Assembly (NCBI RefSeq): GCF_002803515.1
Contig: NZ_PHQX01000002.1
Location: forward strand, 124,001 to 188,000
DNA: 64,000 nt
From: Stenotrophomonas lactitubi
Lineage (GTDB): Bacteria; Pseudomonadota; Gammaproteobacteria; Xanthomonadales; Xanthomonadaceae
Direction of reading: 5' to 3'
The notes below the pieces were generated by a model. It searched no databases. It was not told the DNA's origin and worked only from the letters and a program-made list of their open reading frames with translations. Below are positions 17,693 through 33,053 of this stretch, piece after piece (the first letter of the stretch is position 1; every line of letters starts with the position of its first letter). The position numbers were made by a program, and so were the translations under genes.

Positions 17693-17717
17693 GTAGTGCC
17701 GGCCGCTGGCCGGCAAC
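17693..17717 (+). repeat. SMAG-type GTAG palindrome
   Basis: gtagtgccggcc...ggccggcaac, a GTAG-headed palindrome of the 'tgccggcc' subtype, 35 bases after the opgD stop. It forms part of the left arm of the mirror-symmetric region; its exact reverse complement is at 18309-18333. Confidence 0.85.
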
Positions 17718-17768
17718 CTCAGAAGCAACAGCAACAGCAACAGCAACAGCTGGCATTCGGTGGGATGG

Positions 17769-17961
17769 CGGGGTGGGTCCGGTTGCGGGGGACGCCGTGA
17801 ACCCATCCCTGGGGGCTTGGCCGCGGCTTGCACGTGTGCGCTGTCCTGCGCACACGGCAAGACCGGGGTTGGGCATCCTGCCCAACCCGCCCGAGGCATG
17901 CCTCGGGCCCATGCCGCGGACACCCCCGCAACCGGACCCACCCCGCCTTCGACAGATTTCC
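17769..17961 (-). repeat. 3'-end structured element, copy A (loop-expanded)
   Basis: Outer arms 17769-17791 and 17923-17945 are perfect 23-bp reverse complements. On the opgD strand the inner part reads ggggacgccgtgaaccc, then atccctgggggcttgg, then a stem that in other copies closes as a short hairpin. Here the hairpin loop holds about 80 extra bases forming three more hairpins (gtgtgcgc/gcgcacac, ggttgggca/tgcccaacc, cccgaggc/gcctcggg). The tail cttcgacagatttcc follows. It starts 112 bases after the opgD stop codon. Confidence 0.7.
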
Positions 17962-18042
17962 GCGATCTGTCGGGATGGCATGGCCTGCTCTTGGTGGGTG
18001 TCGACCACGCTGCTGTTGGTGGGTGTCGACCTTGGTCGACAC

Positions 18043-18141
18043 GTAGATCCACGCCATGCGTGGATGCTCTTCGATCCCAATTCGAAATATTCGAAATATT
18101 CGATTTCGATGGAGATTCATCCACGCATGGCGTGGATCTAC
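18043..18141. repeat. SMAG-type inverted pair with AT-rich spacer
   Basis: gtagatccacgccatgcgtg at 18043 faces its reverse complement ending in gtggatctac at 18141. The spacer is unusually AT-rich for this genome and carries repeated ttcgaa and aatatt palindromes. A separate hairpin, gtgtcgacc/ggtcgacac, precedes it at 18023-18042. Confidence 0.8.
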
Positions 18142-18150
18142 CAGACACCG

Positions 18151-18262
18151 GGAAACTGTCAGAGGTGGGGCGGTGTCGGATTGCGGGGTGTCAGCCGCAT
18201 GGATGCGGCTGCCAAGCCTACAGGGACGTACTTGCGGCGTCCCCGCTATCCGACACCGCCCC
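18151..18262 (+). repeat. 3'-end structured element, copy B
   Basis: Outer arms 18167-18180 and 18249-18262 are perfect complements; inner arms gcgggg (18183) and ccccgc (18241) extend the stem. Inside are a hairpin cagccgcatggatgcggctg (18192-18211) and the conserved strand ccaagcctacagggacgt. It begins with ggaaactgtcagagg. Read on the tdk strand it is 112 bases downstream of the tdk stop, in the same orientation as the other copies relative to their genes. Confidence 0.75.
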
Positions 18263-18308
18263 GCCATCCCACCGAATGCCAGCTGTTGCTGTTGCTGTTG
18301 CTTCTGAG

Positions 18309-18333: not shown

Positions 18334-18373
18334 CGCGTCGGCAGGTGCAGGGCGCAGCCCTGCCGAAAAACCC

Positions 18374-21128: not shown

Positions 21129-21245
21129 GGCCGGTCGGGGTGGGGCCGCGGGGGACGCCGTGAACCCGTCCCTGGGGGCTTAGCCGCGCCATCCATGGCG
21201 CGGATACCCCCGCGAACCCACCCCGACCGGCCTCTGACAGATTCC
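21129..21245 (-). repeat. 3'-end structured element, copy D
   Basis: Outer arms 21129-21144 and 21217-21232 are perfect complements; inner arms cgcggggg (21147) and cccccgcg (21207) continue the stem. On the rep strand it then reads acgccgtgaacccgtccc, tgggggcttag and a hairpin gcgccatccatggcgc, with tail cctctgacagattcc. It is the most compact copy and lies 56 bases after the rep stop. Confidence 0.75.
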
Positions 21246-32943: not shown

Positions 32944-33053
32944 GGAAACTGTCTGAGGTCGGGCGGGTGGGTCATGCAGGGGCGTTGGCGCCATGGATGG
33001 CGCCATCGAGCTTACATGGATGTACTTGCAGCGTCCCCTGCATGGCCCACCCG
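32944..33053 (+). repeat. 3'-end structured element, copy C
   Basis: Outer arms 32964-32982 and 33035-33053 complement each other at 18 of 19 positions, the exception being a T/C change that keeps a G-U pair. Inside are a hairpin tggcgccatggatggcgcca (32986-33005) and the conserved strand cgagcttacatggatgt then acttgcagcgt. It begins ggaaactgtctgagg. Read on the mgsA strand it lies 66 bases beyond the mgsA stop. The remaining 33054-33118 shows nothing else. Confidence 0.75.

What the first reader, a model, noticed from the sequence alone, without database searches (positions are those of the whole stretch)
21129..21245. A four-copy family of structured elements fixed at gene 3' ends
Copies at 17769-17961, 18151-18262, 21129-21245 and 32944-33053 share a design: variable but complementary outer arms, GGGGACGC at the stem top, a conserved strand (ACGCYGYRARYMCRTCC then MTGKRRGCTYR), a short hairpin closing on CATCCATG, return arm ACNCCCC, and tail CCTCNGACAGWTTCC. 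Arms differ between copies but pairing is kept, which is covariation-like. All four lie 56-112 bases after a stop codon (opgD, tdk, rep, mgsA) and in the same orientation relative to that gene. Four of four suggests a role in the mRNA 3' end, or a mobile unit with strict target preference. I do not recognise a named family.
Basis: partly seen in the sequence, partly recalled or inferred. Interest (0 to 1): 0.85.

Follow-up and report, generated by a model that had tools for sequence, protein, structure and literature searches.

The report
Scattered paired RsmA-type RNA hairpins
The four "structured elements" belong to a family with well over a hundred copies in this bacterium; read on the opposite strand, each folds into two small hairpins with the loop that the global regulator RsmA/CsrA recognises, and neighbouring copies point away from each other, which suggests scattered RNA decoys or switches for that regulator.

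Summary
The structure is real but misread. It is not four copies: a motif search gives 180 places in the genome; a covariance model returns 150, its scoring limit. Covariation is strong: 34 of 39 pairs change on both sides, score 0.80 against 0.197 shuffled. Rfam TwoAYGGAY (RF01731, same clan as RsmW) matches own-genome copies on that strand just below threshold (40.4 vs 43 bits); in genome G508 it passes threshold on copies that my model also finds. The 3'-end rule fails (78 of 124). The real rule is pairing: 51 of 51 neighbouring pairs have GGA strands outward and 0 of 47 pairs share arms. The model hits 48 of 274 genomes of the class. Best reading: a high-copy, paired variant of TwoAYGGAY-type RNA that probably binds RsmA. 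Transcription, binding and spread are untested; Ysr224, a partial relative, is annotated on the other strand.

The parts
17767..17947 (-). Copy 1 (GGA strand -): outer stem plus two GGA hairpins; the second hairpin carries about 80 nt of extra hairpins, two of them with GGA in the loop
   Evidence: read from the sequence; partial model match 17791-17855 -; folded
17948..17961 (+).
   Evidence: conserved in Stenotrophomonas copies, not in other genera
18164..18265 (+). Copy 2 (GGA strand +), partner of copy 1, unlike arms
   Evidence: model match 18165-18264 +, 103.3 bits
21128..21233 (-). Copy 3 (GGA strand -), single, after rep; GGA strand is antisense to both neighbours
   Evidence: model match 21131-21230 -, 100.4 bits
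32959..33058 (+). Copy 4 (GGA strand +), single, between the + gene ending 32711 and mgsA (- strand)
   Evidence: model match 105 bits
17669..17686 (.). Outer GCAGGGC/GCCCTGC hairpin on the opgD side of the composite
   Evidence: read from the sequence; similar outer hairpins at other pairs
18347..18363 (.). Outer hairpin on the tdk side, inverted
   Evidence: read from the sequence
17693..17715 (+). SMAG repeat (REP of Stenotrophomonas), part of the surrounding mosaic
   Evidence: published consensus in PMC2613905 passage
18016..18141 (.). Spacer between copies 1 and 2: GTCGACC palindromes and a pair of GTAGATCCACGCC... repeats
   Evidence: same kind of spacer in other pairs

Best explanation
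A long outer stem, free in sequence but kept paired, presents two short hairpins whose hexaloops C[ANGGAN]G are the RsmA/CsrA recognition loop, 20 nt apart, which suits one RsmA dimer. In this genome the module has spread to 150 or more copies, many in inverted pairs with GGA strands outward and unlike arms. Most likely mechanism (inferred): RNA from the GGA strand, made outward from the pair or as part of a neighbouring transcript, binds RsmA and serves as one site of a distributed decoy, or tethers RsmA to that transcript. Shown here: structure, covariation, strand, loop consensus, pairing rule, distribution, kinship to RF01731. Inferred: transcription, RsmA binding, decoy or cis role, way of copying.
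For: Covariation 34 of 39 pairs, score 0.800 vs 0.197+-0.011, unguided consensus fold gives both hexaloops. Strand: A.C vs G.T 62:20, same sign on both chromosome strands and gene orientations and in other genera 18:6. Loops: the second loop, not in my search pattern, keeps its fixed positions in 165-168 of 168 copies; 164 of 202 long stems found without any motif enclose two CANGGANG on one strand. RsmA loop rules from PMC7652899 passages. RF01731: own genome up to 40.4 bits, 8 of 12 matches being copies that R1 also lists, same strand; in G508 10 of 10 matches (all at or over 43 bits) coincide with R1 matches, same strand. CsrA present in 15 of 15 genomes; own CsrA keeps L4 and R44. Partner family in G190 with CAGGA[AC]G and CAGGAUG loops.
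Against: No transcript or binding data. No promoter-like or terminator-like site in the two window regions scanned. GGA strand is antisense to both neighbours in 30 of 124 copies, copy 3 included. In single-sequence folds the 3-bp second hairpin is not in the minimum-energy fold of window copies 2, 3 and 4 (centroid of copy 4 has it). RF01731 gathering score is not reached in this genome. The element is missing in 21 of 91 genomes of the genus at one mismatch while CsrA is universal in the 15 tested. The strand test cannot tell RNA from single-stranded DNA.
Confidence: 0.55

Rival explanations
1. A DNA-level mobile element: the inverted pair is the two ends of a non-autonomous unit, and hairpins of single-stranded DNA on one strand are recognised by an unknown transposase, as REPs are by RAYTs. 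The tips are the enzyme's contacts.
For: High copy number with near-identical subfamilies (45 of 124 copies have A1 arms), fixed inward/outward pairing, presence/absence and allele swaps in relatives, cassettes with SymE-like genes between pair members in G004-G006. The strand asymmetry fits a ssDNA hairpin too.
Against: None of 5 Y1 transposase loci of the own genome has an element within 1.5 kb; spacers of pairs are not one conserved interior; loops match the RsmA rule exactly with freedom only at the N positions; Rfam kin is an RNA family.
Confidence: 0.25
2. One reading: a 3'-end stabiliser or Rho-type boundary downstream of stop codons.
For: 78 of 124 copies follow a gene in that orientation, 75 of them 63-165 nt after the stop; Ysr224 is annotated on that strand.
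Against: 46 of 124 do not, 13 of them between divergent genes; mispairs show constraint on the other strand; no U-tract terminators in the scanned regions.
Confidence: 0.1
3. No function: a mosaic of palindromic repeats whose arms are kept complementary by hairpin-templated repair.
For: The spacers are dense mosaics of other palindromic repeats; deletions and chimeric alleles at the opgD-tdk locus, among them mismatched arms in L142.
Against: Does not explain conserved loops, the constant 5-nt bulge, the strand-specific mispairs or the wide taxonomic reach.
Confidence: 0.1

Closest known systems
TwoAYGGAY RNA (Rfam RF01731, clan CL00106; table row in PMC2864571; CsrA prediction in PMC4333381)
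   Same: Poorly conserved long outer stem, two hairpins with AYGGAY-like loops, conserved AG between them, same strand, end-to-end alignment
   Different: Scores here stay below the gathering score; one of the two loops is ANGGAY rather than AYGGAY in about half of the copies; second hairpin with bulge; hundreds of paired copies are not part of what I saw described for it
RsmX/Y/Z/W and CsrB-type RNAs
   Same: GGA loops for RsmA/CsrA (PMC7652899 passages)
   Different: Those are single sRNA genes with several sites; here a two-site module repeated across the genome; RsmW matches only at 11 bits
Ysr224 (RF02770, Yersinia sRNA)
   Same: Its model contains the core of this element
   Different: Annotated on the opposite strand, lacks the full outer stem, below gathering score
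REP/SMAG repeats and TIRs of tyrosine transposases (PMC2613905, PMC3733652)
   Same: High-copy palindromic intergenic repeats, often in inverted pairs, in the same spacers
   Different: Different sequence and architecture; here no linked Y1 transposase
RsmU (Xanthomonas 3'-UTR RsmA-binding sRNA, PMC7694677 passages)
   Same: RsmA-binding RNA from an mRNA 3' region in the same family of bacteria
   Different: One locus; not compared by sequence here

Membership tests
TwoAYGGAY (RF01731) | Two hairpins with AYGGAY terminal loops | tested here: inconclusive
   First loop AYGGAY in at least 162 of 168 copies; second loop ANGGAY with Y in 78 of 168 at the first N (read on the GGA strand)
TwoAYGGAY (RF01731) | Rfam gathering score 43 bits | tested here: not met
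   Window 0 hits; own genome best 40.4 bits, 12 matches at E<=1. Met in G508 by copies that R1 also finds
TwoAYGGAY (RF01731) | Outer stem not conserved in sequence | tested here: met
   22 of 24 outer pairs change on both sides
TwoAYGGAY (RF01731) | Tandem G-A pairs in one stem (named in PMC4333381) | not tested
   passage only
RsmA/CsrA-binding RNA | GGA in hairpin hexaloop ANGGAN closed by C-G, two sites 10-63 nt apart | tested here: met
   rule
RsmA/CsrA-binding RNA | RNA is made and binds the protein | not testable with these tools
   no expression or binding data
REP/RAYT or TIRYT repeats | Copies beside a Y1 (HUH) transposase gene | tested here: not met
   0 of 5 Y1 loci of the own genome, about 1.5 kb each side
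Ysr224 (RF02770) | Rfam gathering score 70 bits | tested here: not met
   best seen 51.3 bits, L240; about 26 bits in the window

The most novel reading that the evidence does not exclude
A regulator's decoy has become a spreading repeat: each intergenic pair encodes two divergent RsmA-binding RNAs of unlike sequence, so that they cannot anneal, and some 150-180 such sites together do the work of CsrB/RsmB-type RNAs and set the level of free RsmA.
Probability: 0.22. Interest if true: 0.88.

Novelty: new variant of a known kind. Interest (0 to 1): 0.72.

Why it matters
TwoAYGGAY is an Rfam family whose CsrA binding was predicted but called work in progress in the passage I saw (PMC4333381). Here a relative occurs in more than a hundred copies in one genome, with clear covariation, a strand assignment from mispair asymmetry, and a strict outward pairing of unlike copies. 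That makes its function directly testable. If RsmA binds them, this is a distributed Csr/Rsm sponge in a bacterial family in which, for Xanthomonas, the PMC7694677 passages report no homologue of the known RsmA-sequestering RNAs, only RsmU.

Tried and rejected
Rejected: (1) REP/SMAG or TIRYT membership. (2) Ends of SymE cassettes: SymE-like genes lie inside some pairs of G004-G006, but the own genome has no PF08845 match and 27 of 30 SymE loci show no element within 1.5 kb. (3) Intrinsic terminator: 0 sites in the two window regions scanned. (4) A strict 3'-end rule. (5) Chromosomal mutation bias as the cause of the strand signal. (6) A second long-stem partner beside class-wide copies: none with two GGA loops in 19 loci; L248 has three single same-strand copies and L231 has two same-strand copies 922 nt apart. 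So the strict pairing is shown for this genome and close relatives, with a few distant pairs within 600 bp that agree (L224, L231, L236, L247). (7) Rfam miRNA families in low-threshold lists were taken as chance long-stem matches. (8) Paper searches: seen as listings, with passages and one section. None that I saw describes this paired repeat family; the library holds open-licence papers only, so this is not proof of absence from print.

Full report
WHAT IS THERE. A pattern from the conserved strand finds 87 forward and 93 reverse places in the window's own genome at up to two mismatches, none for the reversed pattern. I collected 124 copies (up to three mismatches) from fetched stretches; 120 of 124 have the same internal length, and the arms match at 20-24 of 24 positions in 123 of 124. 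Host: a SMAG repeat with the published S. maltophilia consensus (window 17693-17715; PMC2613905 passage) points to Stenotrophomonas; the genome itself is unnamed.

STRUCTURE AND COVARIATION. On 168 distinct gapless copies, 33 of 40 proposed pairs have Watson-Crick types that differ on both sides, against 9-15 when partners are slid. On 41 thinned sequences from this genome, other Stenotrophomonas and other genera (alignment A3, no gaps), 34 of 39 pairs have two-sided changes, 96.9% of cells pair, covariation score 0.800 against 0.197+-0.011 in 500 shuffles. RNAalifold without guidance gives the same three-way structure: long outer stem, a hairpin with a hexaloop, and a second hairpin of 3 bp under a hexaloop with a constant 5-nt bulge.

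WHICH STRAND. As distinct derived events it is 62 to 20, p=3.7e-6. The sign is the same for copies on either chromosome strand (21:7, 23:4) and for either gene orientation (25:6, 19:5), which speaks against replication or gene-transcription bias, and it holds in other Stenotrophomonas (17:9) and other genera (18:6). So the constrained strand is the reverse complement of the one read. The test does not separate RNA from single-stranded DNA.

THE LOOPS. On that strand both tips read C[ANGGAN]G. For the tip that was not in my search pattern the fixed positions are kept in 165-168 of 168 copies and mainly the two N positions vary. A scan for long stems that used no motif found 202; 164 enclose two such 8-mers on one strand, and of 177 with the element's basal pattern 163 keep both, 7 one, 7 none (first part). 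Review passages give this rule for RsmA/CsrA: SELEX consensus RUACARGGAUGU, ANGGAN hexaloop, hairpins of few base pairs, two sites 10-63 nt apart (PMC7652899). Here the two GGA triplets have 20 nt between them. A csrA gene is present in 15 of 15 genomes tested; the own one keeps L4 and R44. Against: single-sequence folding puts the weak second hairpin into the centroid of window copy 4 only, not into the minimum-energy folds of copies 2, 3 and 4.

KNOWN FAMILY. Rfam gives nothing at gathering score in the window. Loops align on loops. In G508 RF01731 has 11 matches over its cut-off; in the fetched stretches 10 of 10 RF01731 matches coincide with R1 matches on the same strand. CsrA binding by TwoAYGGAY had been predicted (PMC4333381 passages).

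PAIRS. Fifty-one neighbouring pairs lie within 700 bp and 51 of 51 have GGA strands outward, spacer median 175 nt. Of 47 pairs examined for arms none is homotypic (identity 0.9 or more), against 6.9 expected; 1 of 5000 shuffles was as low. At the opgD-tdk locus 14 of 14 relatives with two copies show the same orientation and unlike arms (read). In G190 the partner of the element is a second long-stem family with two CAGGA[ACU]G-type loops in 8 of 8 cases; five more copies of that second family in G248, G263 and G291 had no element found within 1.5 kb. CAGGA(U/A/C)G is the loop named for CsrB. Unlike arms would keep the two copies from annealing in one transcript, or avoid a long DNA palindrome; the data do not separate these.

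PLACEMENT. Four of four is a small sample of this. GGA-strand RNA would be antisense to both neighbours in 30 of 124 copies, copy 3 among them.

SPREAD. At one mismatch 70 of 91 genomes of the genus and 25 of 247 of the family (the one in G211 looks like chance) have matches. The model finds 48 of 274 genomes of the class, 43 of 221 genera, at E<=1e-4. At the opgD-tdk locus 22 of 29 relatives carry the element (one of 30 loci could not be oriented); at the rep locus 14 of 30, plus L166 with an insertion in a hairpin that the script missed, and L165 held too short to tell. Several others have different repeats there, or nothing. Alleles swap arms and hairpins while pairing is mostly kept; L142 is a visible exception. 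One allele keeps the outer palindrome without the inner pair (L163). No mobilising enzyme was found.

VERDICT. A high-copy, paired variant of TwoAYGGAY-type RNA, probably RsmA/CsrA-binding. Decoy versus cis role, transcription and copying remain open.

Noticed in passing
L084-L088 (G004, G005, G006), between pair members 1.2-1.6 kb apart: SymE-like genes (PF08845, two of the frames tested at 23.7 and 34 bits) sit between the members of some pairs, as if the spacer took up a cassette.
   Followed up: partly
L197-L209 (G190, G248, G263, G291): A second long-stem repeat with two CAGGA-type loops; in G190 8 of 8 copies pair with the element, in the other genomes 0 of 5 within 1.5 kb.
   Followed up: partly
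window 17767-17947; own genome C1:225185; L084, L086, L087: A recurrent large version of the second hairpin with extra hairpins, shared between species.
   Followed up: no
L166 near 1980-2060; own genome C1:1413547: Other palindromic sequences inserted within the hairpins of single copies, e.g. a GGGGTCAGATCC repeat.
   Followed up: no
L163, opgD-tdk spacer: A 149-nt allele in which the outer palindrome closes on itself without the inner pair: an empty site or a clean deletion.
   Followed up: no
L031 and L032 (own genome): Two Y1 transposase genes flanked by GGGGTCAGATCC and GGTGGGTGCCGACC inverted repeats, perhaps the two TIR families that PMC3733652 mentions for strain K279a.
   Followed up: partly
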